Origin: Sialis fuliginosa
Lineage: Eukaryota; Arthropoda; Insecta; Megaloptera; Sialidae
Assembly (NCBI GenBank): GCA_961205875.1
Contig: OY540809.1
Location: 17,062,267-17,126,266 of the forward strand
Direction: 5' to 3'
Length of the DNA stretch: 64,000 nt
In this document: positions 30,961 to 42,081 of the stretch, in pieces
Layout: each line of letters begins with the position of its first letter
Numbering within the stretch: the first letter of the stretch is position 1
Position numbers and translations under genes: made by a program
Notes under the pieces: generated by a model
The model's database searches: none
The model's input: the letters and a program-made list of their open reading frames with translations, nothing else
What the model was told of the DNA's origin: nothing

Positions 30961-32084
30961 TATTATTTTATCTGGTTTCTTAATTTATAATTTTTTTATT
31001 ATACATAGTTCTTTGGTAACGGGAAATTATATTTACTACTAAAAATGCGTTTTTTTGCGCATTAAAACATAATAATTGATTAAGTATAAATGTTGGTGCT
31101 TGTAGAAGATTTGATTCGTTTTAATAAATTAATTTATTTATATTTAAGTATGTAGATAGAAGTATACTATATTTTTTAATCACTGTAAATTTCCTTATTA
31201 CTCACTATTTAAAAATACTTATTTGTTTACGCTTTGAGCTCTAATTTAAAGTACCTAGGTATAGCTATTCATAAAAATAATATGTAATATAGACATTTTT
31301 AAATATATATTTTAGGGATGTAACGGATGTCGTTTTAGCGGATAAGGATGCGGATGTGAATCTTAGATTAGGAAAGACTATGGATACATAACAACCAATG
31401 CTAATCCGTATATGAAAGTGTTACCAAAATTTGTCGGCAGCCATCTTTTTTTAATTGTCAAAATCGCATATTATCCCAGAGGCGTCAGTTGAAAATTTAT
31501 AATATGCAAATATGCTTTTAATTACAATTGAATTTAGTATGTAAGAGAGATGGTAGTTCCAAATAGACATTTCTCTGTTAATCAATTATCACTGGAAATA
31601 CTTTTATAGACAATATAAAACATTTATTATTAGTTAATTTTATAATTCAAAACAATTGATATTTATTTTAAAATCTGAATGATACGCCAATGACTCGTGG
31701 AGCGATTTTTCGTGGTGCGATATGGTAACAACGCTAGGTAATGTGTTATTTGTCCTTAATCTTTCCTTGTCTAAGATGTGAATTGTTAACTTATTTGATA
31801 AATAAGATTTATTGTATTTTTGTATAGATGTTAATTTAGAAAAAAATAATACTTGAAATTTTATAAGCAACACTGTTAAAAATTTTTGTAAATTTACTAC
31901 ATTTTTACTAAGCAGTTGCTTTGTAAAATTACAAACTCTCGTATTGTATTGGAATTTTCAAACGCATTCGTAGTAATATTGCAATTTGTAATAACAAGAG
32001 TACTAAGCAGGTTGCAATTTTACAAATTTTTTGTATTCGTCAGAAACTTGTTGTAATTTTACCATTCAAAGTTGTAGAATTAAA

Positions 32085-32940
32085 TCTAAAGTTTTGTAAA
32101 ATTTCCATACATATTCGGAATTTAATTTTACCACAATTATCTGTAAAATTACTAACCAAAATTTGCAATTACAATCTCAAGAAGTGATTGGAAATTTACA
32201 AATCATTATTTATTTTTTCAAATTCTGTTTGCATTTTTACAAAAATTCATTCAAGTCATGAGCGCTATGTATTTTTACAAGTCTTGTTTGTAATTTTAAG
32301 TCTAAAACTTTGTAAAATTTCTACACATATTCGGAATTTAATTTTACCACATTTATCTGTAAAATTACTAACCAAAATTTGCAATTACAATCTCAAGAAG
32401 TGATTGGAAATTTACAAATTATTATTTATTTTTTCAAATTCTGTTTGCATTTTTACAAAAATTCATTCAAGTCATGAGCGCTATGTATTTTTACAATTCT
32501 TATTTGTAATTTCAAGTCTAAAACTTTGTAAAATTTCTACACATATTCGGATTTTGATTTTACCAAGATTAATAGTAAAATTACTAACCGAAACTTGCAG
32601 TTACAATTACAGGAAATTTACAAATCATTACTTTTTTTTTGAAAATTCTGTTTGCATTTTTACAAAATTTCTTTCAAGTCATGAGCGCTATGTATTTTTA
32701 CAATTCTTGTTTGTAATTTCAAGTCTAAAATTTTGTAAAATTTCTATACCTATTTGTAGTCTAATCTTACTACAGTTATCAAAAAAATGACTAACTGAAA
32801 TACGTAATCCAAATTGCAAAAAGTGATTGAAAAATTGTAAAACTTTAATTACTTTAGATTTGTTTATATTTTTACTAGTGTCTCTTACGATCATATAGTT
32901 TTATGTAATCTTCTAATTCTGCTGTGTAGTTTCAAGTATA
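32085..32940 (+). repeat. tandem array of ~216-bp units, left subterminal region
   Basis: Unit starts (TCTAAA followed by TTTGTAAAATTTC) fall at 32085, 32301, 32517 and 32724, and a degenerate fifth start lies near 32935. The spacings are 216, 216, 207 and about 211 bp. Each unit contains several copies of the GTAAAATTAC / GTAATTTTAC motif in both orientations. Because 216 is a multiple of three, the array stays open in one frame and mimics short proteins; these are not genes. Confidence 0.85.
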
Positions 32941-33659
32941 AAACTTGGTATATTTATTTTGCATTTTTATAAAATTGTGACTTATGCAGATTTAAAATTT
33001 AATTTGAATGCAGTTCTAAGTAAAATTAGTAGCAAACATTTATACTTGAATTGCAAGTATGAAGTATAGATTATAAAAAAATATTTTTTTTTTATTAAAA
33101 TGTTTTAATATACATGTTGTTTCTGAATATGAAATATGTTAGTTTTATAAAAAAAAACTCATAGAATCGATCAAGTGTATAAAAAAAATTGTGAAAGAAC
33201 CGAATTATTCACTGTGGTAAAAAATAGTGATAAAATTTAATTGTAAGTGTAATAGGGTATGTTCAAATCTGCATATCAACATTTTTTATATTTGAAAGTA
33301 AGTAAATCTTTGCTAATTATTATTTATGAATTATATATAAACTGGTCAAAATGCCTAAAACAACCTTTATAAATGCTCCATATGCCGGTGTAAAACAACC
33401 TTTAATTTTATTCGAATTTGCAAGTCCCGACCAGCATAGAAAAAATCATTGTTGCGTTTCTTTTGACATGCCGACACAAGTATAGAACAGTGATTCTCAA
33501 AGTGTGGGTCGCGACTCCTAGGAAGGTCGCAGAAAAATTGATGACATAAACCGAGTTTAGTAAGCAAACAATTATTTTTTACTTGGTGTGAAAACAGTGT
33601 CCACTATTCGCTGAATTAACAATGACAGTTCTCTTGCCATTTGCAACCAACTTATTTAT

Positions 33660-35036
33660 AGGCGAGCGGATTATCGAGTCTAGCTCGCTTAGAAATGACA
33701 ATAACCGACCAATCGACGTTCTAGTGGCTAAAAATGATTTTATTAAATTCTTTATATTTTTCTGAGAAAAAACATCTATATACATGATATTTTTTTATGC
33801 GGTCCTTCAATAGGTACACACATTTTTTTGTTTAATAAATCTAAATCTGCATTAAAAAATCTGAAAAAATTATGTAAGCTTCATTGGATTAAAATGAACA
33901 TTTTTTGTCTCATAAACTTTTTTTTAAAATCAATTGTTTTGAAGATAAAAAATATTTATACTTTAAAAATAGCGAAAAATTCGTATATTTGTGATTTTTT
34001 TTTCGGAAACTAATTGTTCAATCAAAATAAATCAAAAACAAAAAGAATCAGCCAACTTTGAACTATAACTATATTTTTTTTCATTTTGATCATTACTGTA
34101 ATTAAATGTAAAAACTTCATTAGAGCCGAACTCACTCTTTGCGCCGTAAATCGATACCATGGCTGGCTACAACATTCATTTAATAATAATTGAAATATTT
34201 AAATACTGGGATGAATGCATCAATAAAAACACTTTAGAATATTTTTATTGCACATTTATTTGTCACGATTATTTTCTTTATTATAATATTATACTTATCA
34301 GAACATCTACAAAAAATATTTCTGTTCTTGTTGCGGAAAATTTCCTTGTACAGCTAAAACATGCTCTTGTTTGGATTTAGATTTAAAATGTTGTTCAGTT
34401 TGTAGATGTTTTGATAAGTGTAACAATAAAGAAAATAATTGTAACAAATAAATGTGCAATAAAAATATTCTAAAGTGTTTTTATTGAAACTTTCATCCCA
34501 GTATTTAAATATTTCAATTATTAAACGAAAATTGTAGCCAGCCATGGTATCGATTTACGGCGCAAGGAGTGAGTTCGGCTCTAATGAAGTTTTTACATTT
34601 AATTACAGTAATAATCAAAATGAAAAAAAATCTAATTATAGTTTAAAGTTGGCTGATTCTTTTTGTTTATGTTTTATTCTGATTGAATAATTAGTTACCG
34701 AGAAAAAAATTCACAAATATACGAATTTTTCGCTATTTTTAAAGTTAAAATATTTTTTATCTTCAAAACTATAGCTTTAAAAAAAAAGTTTATGAGACAA
34801 AAAATGTTTATTTTAATCCAATGAAGCTTACATAATTTTTTCAGATTTTTTAATGCAGATTTAGATTTATTAAACAAAAAAATGTGTGTACCTATTGAAG
34901 GACCGCATAAAAAAATATCATGTATATAGATGTTTTTTCTCAGAAAAATATAAAGAATTTAATAAAATCATTTTTAGCCACTAGAACGTCGATTGGTTGG
35001 TTAGTGTACTCGAAATAGCTGTAATCCGCTCGCCCT
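33660..35036. repeat. giant palindrome (about 600-bp arms) inside the hAT-like element
   Basis: From GGCGAGCGGATTA at 33660 the sequence is repeated in inverse to TAATCCGCTCGCC at 35036. Only the outer 50 bp and scattered positions diverge. The arms share landmarks such as CGACGTTCTAGTGGC, GAACTCACTC, CGATACCATGGCTGGC and ATACTGGGATGAA. The loop is short, about 34330-34395. Paired open frames on opposite strands (for example a MAGYN-starting frame from each arm) are mirror images and are not separate genes. It could be a foldback element or an inverted duplication made during abortive transposition. Confidence 0.85.
34287..34451 (+). pseudogene. cysteine-rich CXC-like C-terminal tail in the palindrome loop
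   Basis: A frame closing at TAA (34449-34451) encodes 43 residues with 12 cysteines from 34323. The spacing is CxCCx4Cx4CxCx6CCx2CxCx3C with a final NNKENNCNK. Part of it (GKFPCTAKTCSCLDLDLK) falls in the loop and the rest in the right arm. The spacing resembles the CXC/CRC zinc-binding module and the Cys-rich tails of some transposases. There is no start codon or upstream domain: the frame is closed by a stop just before 34287. An AATAAA occurs within 20 bp downstream. It may be the surviving 3' end of a transposase gene. A chance run in T/G-rich DNA cannot be excluded. Confidence 0.35.
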
Positions 35037-35784
35037 ATTATACGAAATGGTATTTTCAGTACTGACCAACATCAAAACAAAGCCGCGCTCACTCATCACA
35101 TTAAATTTAATTTAAAATATTTTAAGTAAACTCAATTAGTTAGTTAAGTTAATGTCGAAAAATATACAAATAATATTTTGTTCAAAGATGTACTCGAGAT
35201 AAGTTATTAACTTGTTATTAATTATTATTGATATTAAATTTCGCTATTAATCACAATTATGAGTGATTCAATTCAAAAAGTTTGAGAAATACTGGTATAG
35301 AACATAGTTTCATGTGAACGCGCTGGCGGAAGGGGTAAATTTTGTTACATTTTATTTTCTCACGATGCTAAGCTACTGCGTATGAGCAATAATACGATTT
35401 TTGAACAGTCGTTATTAAAAATTTGTTGTGTAAAGATTGATGCTGCTACAAGTGATTTTTTATAATTCTGTTGTTTAATCCAATAATTGTTTTTAACGTT
35501 TATTGAATATATATCTGTTATAATTCAGGTAACTTTTTCACCTACTTACATCTTTAAGCTGTAGCCATTTGTCTAAACAAATGATTTTTATTTTTGGAGT
35601 TAAAATTTTAAGGCAAAAGAAATATTTTCTTGTTTCAAATAATTTTTTTCCAAAACTAAGATTTTAATATTTGAAATGTGTAATCAAATTTTGATCAGTG
35701 TTTTAAAATTTCACGACAAATAAGTATAACTTCTAACGCGTGTACATAAGTACACATACCCACTTTTTGTTTTGTTTTTTATAG

Positions 35785-37188
35785 ACATGGATCATAAATA
35801 TCGTCTTATATTATATTATATTATATATACATGGCTTCATTTTGAAGAAGATTCTGATAAGGTATATTGCAAATATATGCCAGGCCTGCTTGATGATCCA
35901 AATGTATGCGAAGAACTGCAAGAAATGGTGAAAAATTTAGAACCACCCAAATCTACATAGCCAACATTTCTAGTGGATATTCGCGGAAGTGCTCGTAAGT
36001 AATGATATGTTATTTTAAAATAAATTCTTTACCACAATATTAATTTTTTTACATTTTATTAATTTTTTATGAGCAAAAAAAATATTTTGACATATTATTA
36101 ATCAATTTTTTAGATACTTATAAAGAAGCTGAAAATAAAATCGTTGAGTTAGAAACAAAACCATATGTATACTCGACAGCAAATGAAGAATCTGCAAAAA
36201 AAAAGCAGATACTGATAAGAAGGCTCTGAAGCGCAAATTTGTTGCAAAGAATAAAGAGCTCATTAACAAACAATTTAGTCAAGCAGCATTGAAATGGACA
36301 GACGATCTTGGTATAAAAATTCGTAAGTAGTTTTAATTTTTTTTGGTAAAATTTTTTGTTATAAATATGCAACAAATATATTTTTTTTAATGTTAGATTC
36401 ATCTAATCCTAAAAGTCAACACACAAAAAGAAAAAAAATGAATTCTAAATCGATTTCAATCCCAAGTTGTCACCCATCTGATGACACTGACATTAAGTCA
36501 ACTTCAACGGAATTTTCCAGTGATGAAGACAACACTAACGGATTAGATCCAAACAATATATTAAATCCAAAAAGGATTGTAAAAAAAAAACGCTGAAGAA
36601 AAACTCGAGACCAGTGCAAATCAACCAATGACAATAGGTAAAAACATACATCGTTTTTTTTTTCTTTAATGTGTATTGGAAACGTGATTTTTTTTGTTAC
36701 AGAAGATCTGCATCAATTCATATCGAGCTGTTTTGTAAGCATCGGCAAACGTTTGTCAAATTTAGGAAGTCAATTAACCAATTATTCAACCAGATTACAA
36801 AGCCTTGAAAATGTCATTGAAAAACTTCATAATTCAACAAGCATTTTGAGTGACGAAATCAGTAACTCTGAGAGTGAATTTGACATGATTCTTCCACTAC
36901 AAAATGAAGAAAGTTTTATTAAATTTAATGATAAAATTAAAAATGATGTTGATTTTAAAAAAAAATTGGTAAGTAATCACAAATAAAATTATTATTTTTT
37001 TATATAAGCCCTATTTTATATAATTCGTTTATAAGACATGAATAATAATTTTCTTTTTTTAGATTTACAAATTGTTATGCTAAATAAACAAGACAGTAGA
37101 TATAACCAAGAATATTGGAAAGATACTCCGTGCCTACATTACTCGTGATTTGGCAATTAATTATGTGGCAATCAAAACGTCAGAATAA
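35785..37188 (+). pseudogene. broken five-exon DUF4806-like gene of the transposon
   Basis: Five exon-like blocks with consistent phases: 35785-35994, 36114-36322, 36397-36637, 36703-36968 and 37063-37188, with donors GTAAGT or GTAAAA and T-rich AG acceptors. Block 1 begins after an acceptor with an ATG two bases in. The last two blocks read ILPLQNEESFIKFNDKI, then a charged helix, then DITKNIGKILRAYITRDLAI. This matches the layout of DUF4806 (LPL...F..., GG/NI...RI...L...LA...Y), a domain of unknown function common in insect and cnidarian high-copy proteins. The middle blocks are Lys/Ser-rich and disordered. Disablements: an in-frame TAG at 35958, frameshifts in the poly-A runs near 36197-36205 and 36580-36590, and a TAA at 37081. 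An AATAAA-containing tail follows. A further upstream leader exon ending at CAG|GTAACT (35529) is possible. The role in transposition is unknown. Confidence 0.6.
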
Positions 37189-37761
37189 TCTTCAAAAAAA
37201 ATTTAAAATTTGTGTTAGCATTAAATTATGTTATTATTTTCATAATATAAATTATTGATAACACTGTTATAATTAATGACATATGTTTAATTGTTAATTA
37301 AATAATTAATAAATTAATATTTAATAAATATTTTATATTTAACACTAAAATACGCTGTTGTAGCATTCATTGATTTAACAATTTTTTTCAGTAAAATTAC
37401 AGTCTGATATTGAAATAAAGCTATGCAAGTTATATCCCGATGCATAGTAATATTGCAACGAGCGGTTTGTATTTTTTTCAAATTGACTTGATGTAAGTTG
37501 GGTAGTAAAAATTCAATACTGCAACAAATAGTTTGTAATTTTTCGAAACTAAATTGGTATTAGTTGGGTTGAAAAATTACGATATATGGTTGTAAAATTA
37601 CTAAATGTATTTAATCTAATTTGTTTAGTAAAATTCCGACTATTGTATTGTAATATTACTAAACAATTTTTTAATAAAGGTTAGTAATATTGCAACAAAT
37701 AGTTTGTAATTTTTCTAAACTAAATTGGTATAAATTGTCTAGTATAATTACAATAAATTTT

Positions 37762-38230
37762 TGTAAAATTACTAAAATTATTAGAAACATTTGGCTTAGT
37801 AAAATTACGAATAATGTACAGTAATATTACTAAACATAAGTCTAGTAAATGATTAGTAATTTTGCGACAGATGATTTGTAATAGTTTAAAATTGAGTTGT
37901 GATAAATTGTATAGTAAATTTACAAAACTGTGTTCCATAATTCCGAAAATTGTGGTGCGTAAAAACTTCCTACACATTTTTGTAAAATTACTAAAATTAT
38001 TAGAAACATTTGGCTTAGTAAAATTACGAATAATGTACAGTAATATTACTAAACATAAGTCTAGTAAATGATTAGTAATTTTGCGACAAATGATTTGTAA
38101 TAGTTTAAAATTGAGTTGTGATAAATTGTATAGTAAATTTACAAAACTGTGTTCCATAATTCCGAAAATTGTGGTGCGTAAAAACTTCCTACACATTTTT
38201 GTAAAATTACTAAAGAAATTTTTGACAGTG
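37762..38230 (+). repeat. tandem array of 219-bp units, right subterminal region
   Basis: TGTAAAATTACTAAA begins units at 37762, 37981 and 38200, exactly 219 bp apart. The first two units are nearly identical. The third is cut after about 15 bp, where the sequence runs into the terminal AAATTTTTGACAGTG. The array therefore abuts the transposon end. The stretch 37385-37760 carries looser copies of the same short motif. Open frames on both strands here are repeat artefacts. Confidence 0.85.
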
Positions 38231-39710
38231 AATGTTAAATTGAAAATGAAAAGTAATTTACAGACTTTTTCATCTTCCAAACGACTTGTCAATTCGTCAT
38301 AGAATAAACCTGCTCCGCTAAAACGTTGTTCACTAGGAACAGTAGCAAGTGGAGGTGATAAGAATTTCCGTACGACATTATATAATTTTTCGTATTAAAA
38401 ATGGAAACGTAAATTTAAAAAAAATAAGCATCTTATGGCATTTTGAAGATTAAAAAGTTATTTTAATCAAAAATTTTGTTCTTTCATGGTTTATAAAAAA
38501 ATATATTAAATAAAATTGCTCGACTGATTATAAAAAAATATTGGAAAATTAAAAAAAAGCATCTAAAAATATTGAAAAATTTTCGAGTTATCTTGCAGAC
38601 CGTTTTGAGAAAAACATGTTTAAAGTTTTTAACAGAAAAATCTTATAATTGCAATTAATTTTGTGCATTAAATAATTGTGGTTAACTTACGTTAAATCTG
38701 CCATTTCGAGTTTGTACTGTATTCTTTCCTTCTTCTGAATTTTTGTATTTCTTATGTTTTCTATTTTGTAATCTATGGGTTGTTCGAGTTTCTTTCGTTG
38801 CCAGAGTCGTGTGAATCCTGGTTAATGATTTTAATGGGTTGCACGACTACATTTATCGTTATTAAAAGGAATTTTCGAGTATTTTTTAAAATGAATATTC
38901 ATAAATGTATAGACAATAATAATAACAAATAATAAACGTTTTTTCATAGACAAGAATAACAAATAATAAAACGGTTTTTTTTTTTTATTCTGGAGGTGTA
39001 CGTAACACCTTAAACTTGTCACTAATTTTTATAAAATGAAATTTATTTTAATCTATTAATCCCATTACTAATTTTCAACTTTTTCTTCTTAATTATTATT
39101 ATTTTTATAGTCGAGACCCATGCACCTTGCATTAACTGCAACCCCCTGTACCCGACCCTGATTTTTTTTCTGATTATAAACACACATTAACCGGCGATTA
39201 CGAAATAAAATACTTTAGGCAGGTGTAAAAAAATAAAAATAATTCACGCTAGCTTATAGAAATAATGTAACTTATAATTCGAGCCATCTTATTACGGCTC
39301 ATTATTTTTTTTTGTAACATATACGACCATTAATTTAATTTAGATTCAGTACCATTCCGTTATTACATTTAATAAAAAAAATATAAAGTTAATGAGCGAT
39401 ATTTTTCGTTGGAAATAATGAACTGTTCAAATCTGATAAAGTCGTAATAAAATTTATAGTGATTATTATTACTATTATTTTGTATGCTCTGGTTTAGTGC
39501 TTTTTATTATGTCATGGAACGAACGCATTGTCAGTAGAATTGTCATTATCATCTCGAGCTGTTTTATGGATACTAAAATGTGAAACGTTTAGAAAGACAA
39601 GAAAATATTGCGAATGCTCATTAAATAATTTATATGATATATTTATTGAATAAAAACCTAAATAAATCAATGCCAATAGTTTCAGGTTGCGATTATTCAT
39701 GATTCATTAC
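38231..39710. other. no gene seen; possible regulatory sequence
   Basis: This stretch is flanked by transposons but carries few repeats. 39170-39480 contains several posterior-homeodomain-like sites: TTATTACGG, TCGTAATAAAATTTA, GCGATTACGAAATAAA, and AGTTAATGAG. That is only a hint of regulatory function. Confidence 0.3.
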
Positions 39711-41495: not shown

Positions 41496-41669
41496 TACTT
41501 TACATACCTTGGTTCTTAATACATTAAAAGCACCTAAAACTGCAACAAGTTGAGCTGTATTATGCACTGATTAATTTATATAATTAAAAATCAGCATTGA
41601 ATTAAAATTTAATAGTTGGATACATAGATTTTCATTATATTAAACTAGATATCTGTTGACCGATTGCAG

Positions 41670-42001
41670 GCCGAGTCCGACGTATGACGGGTTACCGAAA
41701 CTACCTAGCGCCGCGGAGATGCTGCACCAGCACGCTGTGGCGCACCCGTTCGCGTTGGCCGCACACTTCCAGGGCGCCGCGCTCGCCGCCGCACTCCAGG
41801 CGGGTGGAGCCGGTGGTGGTGGAGGTGCGGGTGGTGGTGGAGGCGGTGGAGGTGCCGGTGTCTACCCGCCCGGACACCCGGCTGCCGGACACCCGATACA
41901 TCCACATCATCCTGCCCCGCCGCCGCCTAGGGATACGTACCCCCTGTACCCGTGGCTGTTGAGTAGGCATGGGAGGATATTCCCGCATAGGTTTCCTGGA
42001 G
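41670..42001 (+). CDS. ems: EMX-class homeobox gene (ems/E5), coding exon 2 with YPWL hexapeptide
   Basis: Second coding exon, residues 97-208. The acceptor is GATTGCAG|G, and the first base completes the Arg codon split at 24500. Order of features: a PSPTYDGLPKLPSAAEML stretch, an Ala/His-rich helix-like segment (about residues 111-141), a long Gly run (about 142-160), a Pro/His-rich linker (161-183), then YPLYPWLLSRHGRIFPHRF at 187-205. The YPWL core is the hexapeptide used by this class to contact Exd/PBX cofactors, and the residues after it match the conserved spacer between hexapeptide and homeodomain in ems/Emx proteins. The donor is GGAG|GTAAGT at 42002. The exon is strongly GC-rich against an AT-rich background, so other reading frames stay open by composition and are not separate genes. 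Skipping this exon would break the frame between exons 1 and 3, so it is constitutive in any full-length product. Confidence 0.87.
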
Positions 42002-42081
42002 GTAAGTCGTACAATTTTCTAGTTTTTATACAGATAGAATTGAGTTGTAATGTATGAAATAGTTATTTGTGTATCTAGTAG

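What the first reader, a model, noticed from the sequence alone, without database searches (positions are those of the whole stretch)
31871..38230. 6.36-kb CACTG-ended DNA transposon with tandem subterminal arrays and an intron-containing DUF4806-like gene
Seen: 14/15-bp matching inverted termini CACTGT.AAAAATTT, arrays of 216-bp (left) and 219-bp (right) units saturated with GTAAAATTAC-type motifs, and a five-block gene with consistent splice phases between them. Known: CMC-type transposons carry CACT(A/G) ends and long subterminal repeat arrays bound by an accessory protein. DUF4806 is an orphan domain in high copy in insects and cnidarians. Inference: the DUF4806 protein may be an accessory, subterminal-repeat-binding factor of a poorly described CMC-related family. 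This would give the orphan domain a role.
Basis: partly seen in the sequence, partly recalled or inferred. Interest (0 to 1): 0.78.

Follow-up and report, generated by a model that had tools for sequence, protein, structure and literature searches.

The report
Young jumping gene with BEN-like relic
This is a real, very recently active DNA transposon whose ends are packed with copies of one palindromic DNA motif and which carries the broken remains of a gene for a likely motif-binding protein, offering a testable reason why a little-understood protein family is so common in some animal genomes.

Summary
The 6,360-bp element 31871-38230 is a DNA transposon with CACTGT...ACAGTG ends. An internal site matches 163 times in the host genome; 19 of 20 fetched copies have both ends. 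The target duplication is exactly 2 bp in 19 of 20 copies with both ends, TA in 14. Copies differ by 0.22% in pairs.

The subterminal regions carry one dyad motif, GTAA-N2-TTAC (18 sites, about 0.1 expected). The five-block gene is real in outline but broken: 21 of 21 copies share two stop codons, and 162 of 163 genomic sites keep the first. A six-frame Pfam scan finds no transposase.

DUF4806 is supported but weak (20.8 bits, cut-off 25), only when blocks 4 and 5 are spliced in frame. It is no longer an orphan: print assigns it to BEN DNA-binding domains. A heptad (coiled-coil) stretch precedes it.

Best reading: a non-autonomous, CACTA/EnSpm-like element, moved in trans, with a dead accessory gene whose product probably bound the arrays. 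Binding and the transposase are inferred: the genome has four long EnSpm-type frames, none shown to have these ends.

The parts
31869..31870 (.). left copy of the 2-bp target duplication (AA)
31871..31885 (+). left terminal inverted repeat CACTGTTAAAAATTT
31871..33000 (+). left subterminal region with 6 GTAANNTTAC dyads
32085..32795 (+). array of 216-bp units (3.3 copies; L012 has one unit more)
33661..35033 (.). palindromic insert (arms about 33698-34313 and 34399-35007, 80-97% complementary in blocks); approximate ends GGCGAGCGGATTA..TAATCCGCTCGCC, placed by eye; present in the window and in 20 of 20 fetched copies
35787..35994 (+). gene block 1; in-frame TAG at 35958-35960
36114..36322 (+). 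gene block 2; frameshift in an A-run near 36196
36397..36637 (+). gene block 3; A-run of variable length near 36581
36703..36968 (+). gene block 4; carries the heptad stretch and the start of the DUF4806-like part
36720..36827 (+). 11 consecutive hydrophobic a/d heptad positions
36885..37164 (+). DUF4806 (BEN-type) similarity, split by the intron 36969-37062; profile positions 5-64 of 90, 20.8 bits
37063..37188 (+). gene block 5; in-frame TAA at 37081-37083
37380..38230 (+). right subterminal region with 12 GTAANNTTAC dyads
37757..38214 (+). array of 219-bp units (2.1 copies; L013 has one unit less)
38216..38230 (-). right terminal inverted repeat (CACTGTCAAAAATTT on the minus strand)
38231..38232 (.). 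right copy of the 2-bp target duplication (AA)

Best explanation
It is a young, non-autonomous cut-and-paste DNA transposon that works like a CACTA/EnSpm element. Shown here: exact CACTG ends, 2-bp target duplications, about 163 copies that are nearly identical where compared, subterminal arrays of the dyad GTAA-N2-TTAC, a decayed spliced gene with a heptad (coiled-coil) stretch followed by a weak DUF4806 (BEN-type) match, and no transposase domain in the element. Inferred: an EnSpm-type transposase from elsewhere in the genome cuts at the CACTG ends and inserts mostly at YR dinucleotides, preferring TA. A dimeric coiled-coil plus BEN-type protein, encoded by an intact relative or ancestor, binds the dyads as TNPA binds En/Spm subterminal repeats and helps bring the ends together. 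The gene in each copy is the dead remains of that accessory gene.
For: Shared exact ends in 19 of 20 fetched copies and 2-bp duplications in 19 of 20 copies with both ends. Internal site found 163 times; mean pairwise divergence 0.22% over 20 copies without L025; L023 and L026 identical at different sites. GTAA-N2-TTAC is the top inverted motif of all four-base half-sites and spacers 0-8, in this element (13 seen, 0.07 expected with one unit per array) and in L053 of a second family (5 against 0.07). DUF4806 appears only on in-frame splicing of blocks 4 and 5. Heptad run of 11, reached by 0 of 5000 shuffles, whose maximum was 10. EnSpm-type transposase frames in the genome. Literature, passages or single sections only: animal CACTA-related elements make 2-bp duplications (PMC1636069); CMCT elements share CA..TG termini in most cases and make 2-5 bp duplications (PMC12730594); DUF4806 is a BEN subtype (PMC11075544); the BEN protein Insv binds a palindrome as a dimer and has a coiled coil (PMC6317261); TNPA recognises the En/Spm subterminal repeats (PMC2613891).
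Against: No transposase with these ends was found. No CACTGTNAAAAATTT end of the three types sought lies within 100 kb of the four long EnSpm-type frames (against 35; nearest on the same contig about 1.06 Mb); ends of this family's own type could not be tested there. The gene is dead in 21 of 21 copies examined, so the burst did not depend on its own product. The DUF4806 score is below the curated cut-off; unrelated families score only 3-5 bits lower (Latrotoxin_C 14.3, Baculo_PEP_C 13.5, PuR_N 12.9 against 17.6). A genome-wide PF16064 search found nothing; it also misses this intron-split gene and found nothing in its control genomes. The published animal CACTA-related elements whose passages I read end in CCC, not CACTG. 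In family B locus L041, which holds an insert, the dyad was not on top. In Insv the stretch that suffices for dimeric DNA binding is a 40-residue part just before BEN, not the coiled coil itself.
Confidence: 0.6

Rival explanations
1. The DUF4806-like gene is a captured host gene (Pack-type passenger), not an ancestral accessory gene. The element picked up a spliced genomic gene, which then decayed and has nothing to do with transposition.
For: Introns are kept, the gene is decayed in 21 of 21 copies examined, and no transposase accompanies it. CACTA elements are known to capture genes (recalled).
Against: A DNA-binding type domain after a heptad stretch, in an element full of one dyad motif, is a striking fit for a mere passenger. 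DUF4806 is highly multiplied in two Hydra species, in a table that also lists several transposase domains (PMC7642931, passage).
Confidence: 0.22
2. The mobilising transposase belongs to another superfamily that makes 2-bp duplications, such as the ISL2EU/PHIS group.
For: No transposase is inside the element, and TA is the main target (14 of 20). TA duplications also occur in PHISTA (PMC12730594, passage). The four EnSpm-type frames were not linked to these ends.
Against: Non-TA duplications (TG, TG, CG, CA, AA) speak against strict TA elements. CACTG ends plus long subterminal repeat arrays are the CACTA pattern.
Confidence: 0.13
3. The DUF4806 match is a chance similarity in a degenerate AT-rich gene, and the gene's product is unknown.
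For: Below the curated cut-off (17.6 and 20.8 against 25 bits). Other families score weakly too (Latrotoxin_C, Baculo_PEP_C and PuR_N; Snapin_Pallidin).
Against: E 4.9e-4 for the joined piece; the hit spans the splice and is lost in block 4 alone, in block 5 alone and in a wrong-frame joint. The order (heptad stretch, then domain near the C end) is sensible.
Confidence: 0.15

Closest known systems
CACTA/EnSpm (CMC) transposons, plant type (En/Spm with TNPA and TNPD)
   Same: CACT-type termini, long subterminal arrays of short motifs, non-autonomous copies moved in trans, a spliced gene for a probable DNA-binding protein
   Different: 2-bp instead of 3-bp duplication, CACTG instead of CACTA, no transposase in the element, and the accessory-like gene resembles DUF4806/BEN, not TNPA
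Animal CACTA-related elements (SmTRC1, Tribolium and Aedes TRC, Spongebob/EnSpm-4N1_HM)
   Same: 2-bp target duplication, animal host, several kb long
   Different: those end in CCC, and SmTRC1 carries a Transposase_21 frame; this one ends in CACTG and carries no transposase
ESTA (EnSpm-like with TA duplications, fungi)
   Same: 2-bp TA duplication within the CMCT group
   Different: fungal, encodes its own transposase and, in the families described there, a TET/JBP dioxygenase; this one takes TG, CG, CA and AA as well
BEN-solo proteins such as Drosophila Insensitive
   Same: coiled coil plus a BEN-type domain; Insensitive binds a short palindrome as a dimer
   Different: host regulators, not transposon genes; the motif differs (CCAATTGG); binding is not shown here

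Membership tests
CMC/EnSpm (CACTA) transposons | termini CAC..GTG (CACTA/G) | tested here: met
   CACTG at both ends in 19 of 20 fetched copies and in the window
CMC/EnSpm (CACTA) transposons | 2-4 bp target duplication (2 bp in animals) | tested here: met
   exactly 2 bp in 19 of 20; animal precedent in PMC1636069
CMC/EnSpm (CACTA) transposons | repeated motifs in the subterminal regions | tested here: met
   18 GTAANNTTAC dyads against about 0.1 expected
CMC/EnSpm (CACTA) transposons | Transposase_21-type DDE transposase in the autonomous element of the family | tested here: inconclusive
   none inside the element (six-frame Pfam scan); 11 transposase matches elsewhere in the genome, four with open frames of 716-933 aa, not linked to these ends
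DUF4806 (PF16064) | score at or over Pfam's cut-off of 25 bits | tested here: not met
   17.6 bits whole read-through gene, 20.8 bits for blocks 4+5; a relic that resembles the family, not a certified member
BEN-type DNA-binding proteins | BEN fold and sequence-specific binding, often as a dimer to a palindrome | not testable with these tools
   DUF4806 as BEN subtype rests on print; the fold of this broken, spliced gene was not modelled and binding was not assayed
Tc1/mariner | strict TA target duplication | tested here: not met
   TG, TG, CG, CA and AA duplications in 5 of 20

The most novel reading that the evidence does not exclude
DUF4806/BEN-type proteins are the animal counterpart of plant TNPA: transposon-encoded dimers that bind dyad motifs in the subterminal arrays of CACTG-ended, EnSpm-like transposons. 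The high DUF4806 counts in some insects and in Hydra would then be transposon genes, and some BEN-domain regulators may descend from them.
Probability: 0.35. Interest if true: 0.8.

Novelty: new variant of a known kind. Interest (0 to 1): 0.57.

Why it matters
If the reading is right, it gives DUF4806 a concrete job and a concrete candidate DNA site, GTAANNTTAC, that can be tested in one binding experiment. It would add a BEN-type factor to the short list of transposon accessory proteins and suggest a transposon source for part of the BEN family. The recent burst (identical copies at different sites) also means that a working transposase for CACTG ends may still exist in this species.

Tried and rejected
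Rejected: artefact or chance ends (copies share exact ends and duplications); Tc1/mariner (non-TA duplications); the idea that this copy makes a working DUF4806 protein (two shared stops and frameshifts); 'DUF4806 is an orphan' (BEN subtype in print).

Led nowhere: PF16064 in the genome (no candidates, and nothing in its control genomes either). A pattern for three spaced dyads was swamped by an 18-bp satellite and its list was cut at 100 rows. A query for copies without the palindrome gave no spanning hit among 40 scored of 325 candidates. Ends near the transposase frames: three end patterns gave 72, 31 and 11 places (reversed controls 53, 13 and 7), all listed, none within 100 kb of the four long frames; ends of this family's own type were excluded by design and remain untested there. 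Viral contigs: the end pattern gave nothing; 3 and 21 stretches matched peptide patterns of the transposase and of the gene, but none was a relative. Rfam on the window: nothing.

Papers. The word DUF4806 is in four papers of the held library; of each I read only the passage with the word (PMC7642931, PMC13270666, PMC11075544, PMC11445403), plus the BEN citation in PMC11075544. None of these passages ties DUF4806 to a transposon; the Hydra table lists it with several transposase domains. So in that library (CC-licensed part of PubMed Central) I found no statement that DUF4806 is a transposon gene. Pan et al. 2023 is not held; it is known here through PMC11075544 and recall. Searches gave no paper; of searches I read the listings and then only passages of PMC1636069 (and its section 5), PMC4298943, PMC2884549, PMC12730594 (and its section 16), PMC3422177, PMC2613891 and PMC6317261. 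PMC2884549 (Daphnia) and PMC3422177 (Aedes ATon) added nothing that I use.

Corrections: an earlier count said 15 TA duplications and entry 2 says about 45 family B ends; recounting gives 14 and 39.
Full report
What was checked. The stretch 31871-38230 was read, and its own genome (G000: 392 Mb, 20 contigs, unnamed) was searched. The left end 31871-32300 and the gene part 36720-37200 each gave 166 first-look candidates; 40 were scored in each search, and all 40 match the whole query at 100%. An internal 27-base site of block 1, with the stop codon's three bases left open, occurs 163 times in the genome (82 + 81); this counts exact matches, so it is a lower bound. Twenty copies were fetched by place. 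Nineteen of the 20 run from the left end to the right end, some with small internal gaps or inserts; L025 breaks off at 37590.

Ends and target. The ends are CACTGTTAAAAATTT and, on the other strand, CACTGTCAAAAATTT. In the 20 copies with both ends (19 fetched plus the window) the flanks repeat exactly 2 bp in 19: TA 14, TG 2, CG 1, CA 1, AA 1 (the window). L021 has CA and TA. No copy shows a longer duplication. Permuting the right flanks gives a mean of 10.9 and a maximum of 16 matches, because TA is so common; among the six sites with another left dinucleotide five match.

Age. Without L025, 20 copies (window included) differ by 0.22% on average in pairs. L023 and L026, on different contigs with different flanks (TA and CA duplications), are identical over 6,347 bp; L018 and L022 differ by one gap position. 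The element moved very recently on an evolutionary scale.

Arrays and motif. The left array has 216-bp units (3.3 copies) and the right 219-bp units (2.1 copies). By a fuzzy count of one marker per unit, L012 has one left unit more and L013 one right unit less than the others; L025 lacks the right array. GTAANNTTAC occurs 6 times left, 12 times right, never in the middle and once in the rest of the window; shuffles average 0.04, 0.06 and 0.10 for left, right and middle. I then tested every four-base half-site with spacers of 0 to 8: GTAA-N2-TTAC is the top inverted motif, with 18 seen against 0.14 expected, or 13 against 0.07 when one unit of each array is kept. In 8 kb of other window sequence the best inverted motif is a different one, 3 against 0.04. 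The site is a dyad, as expected for a dimeric binder.

A second family. A pattern that excludes the main family's ends gave 72 places (reversed control 53); 39 of the 72 are CACTGTCAAAAATTTCC. Of the 30 loci fetched, 16 begin with this end. Eight of these 16 show a right end (..TCAGTG, found by a fuzzy pattern) within 1.5 kb, and eight of eight have a 2-bp duplication, TA in seven and TT in one; lengths are 123 to 1,247 bp. Frames of 80 or more residues exist within 1.5 kb, the longest about 150 in the arrays; they were not scanned against a library. In L053 the same dyad tops the list (5 against 0.07); in L041, which holds an insert, it does not. These were the only two family B loci tested for the motif.

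The gene. Five blocks (35787-35994, 36114-36322, 36397-36637, 36703-36968, 37063-37188) are joined by GT..AG introns of 119, 74, 65 and 94 bp; read in the local frame at each end, the phases are 1, 1, 1 and 0. The gene is broken: TAG at 35958-35960, a frameshift in an A-run of block 2 (18 of 21 copies have the window's run length, three differ), an A-run of variable length in block 3, and TAA at 37081-37083. Both stops are present in 21 of 21 aligned copies, and 162 of the 163 genomic sites keep the first. The breaks are older than the burst.

What it encoded. Pfam's DUF4806 scores 17.6 bits (E 0.005) on the read-through protein; three unrelated families follow with 14.3 to 12.9 bits. It scores 20.8 bits (E 4.9e-4) on blocks 4 and 5 joined in frame and is absent from block 4 alone, block 5 alone and a wrong-frame joint. 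The curated cut-off is 25, so this is support and not proof. A scan of the whole element in six frames, without splicing, gives no family with E below 0.1; DUF4806 thus depends on the splice. Just before it, block 4 has 11 consecutive hydrophobic a/d heptad positions (L, I, V, M, F, Y counted); the best of 5000 shuffles has 10. No coiled-coil predictor was run.

Is DUF4806 an orphan? No longer. [quoted passage not shown] 2023, which I could not open. [quoted passage not shown] the part that suffices for dimeric binding lies just before the BEN domain (PMC6317261, passages). The relic gene of this element has a comparable order, heptad stretch and then a BEN-type match, and the element's ends are full of a dyad motif. 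It is an inference; no binding is shown.

Which transposase? The six-frame scan shows none in the element. The genome has EnSpm-type transposases: two Transposase_21 places and 11 matches to a 466-aa piece of the first, four with open frames of 748, 933, 826 and 716 aa. The piece itself scores 48.6 bits for Transposase_21. No CACTGTNAAAAATTT end of the three types sought lies within 100 kb of these four frames (72, 31 and 11 places, all listed). So the link to EnSpm rests on ends, duplication length and arrays.

Comparison with print. Animal CACTA-related elements make 2-bp duplications: SmTRC1 in 7 of 14 copies, and the Tribolium and Aedes elements, with CCC ends (PMC1636069, section 5 and passages); Spongebob in Hydra likewise (PMC4298943, passages). 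The CMCT group shares CA..TG ends in most cases and 2-5 bp duplications (PMC12730594, section 16). In En/Spm the TNPA protein recognises the subterminal repeats and, with TNPD, is required for transposition; non-autonomous copies move in trans (PMC2613891, passages). DUF4806 is strongly multiplied in Hydra (69 and 54 in two species, 0 to 6 in five other cnidarians), in a table that also lists several transposase domains (PMC7642931, passage).

Verdict. The element is a non-autonomous, CACTA/EnSpm-like DNA transposon that burst recently and carries a dead gene with a heptad stretch and a DUF4806-like part. It is not filed as a certified EnSpm member, because no transposase with its ends was seen, nor as a certified DUF4806 gene, because the cut-off is not met. 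That it works like a CACTA element with a BEN-type accessory protein in its past is the best-supported mechanism.

Noticed in passing
33661-35033: A 1.3-kb palindrome (nested fold-back element, ends GGCGAGCGGATTA..TAATCCGCTCGCC) sits inside the window copy and 20 of 20 fetched copies; its loop has a short Cys-rich frame (34287-34451).
   Followed up: partly
38240-38394: Right flank is a hAT transposase relic (Dimer_Tnp_hAT, 34.4 bits): the element lies beside or inside an older transposon.
   Followed up: no
41644-42057: A coding stretch with PLYPWLLSRHGRIFPHRFPG, which I recall as typical of empty-spiracles type homeobox genes, lies 3.4 kb to the right of the element.
   Followed up: no
G000 C1:7604736-7607212 and C3:10870248-10874391: An 18-bp satellite, GTAAAATTACTTGGTGCC, on C1 contains the same GTAAAATTAC as the element's arrays; the C3 places have the same spacing, but their letters were not shown and the list was cut. 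Whether it derives from such arrays is open.
   Followed up: no
L020:2072-2402: One copy carries an insert of about 330 bp with inverted ends TGCCCGGTATTATAAAGGACCTAACAAA, a MITE-like element inside a young transposon.
   Followed up: no
G000 C1:42598415-42598441: The only one of 163 sites in which the codon at the block-1 stop differs (lists compared); its letters were not read.
   Followed up: no
L029-L058: Second CACTG-ended family (CACTGTCAAAAATTTCC..TCAGTG), very variable in length (123 to 1,247 bp in eight complete copies), with 2-bp duplications in 8 of 8 complete copies.
   Followed up: partly
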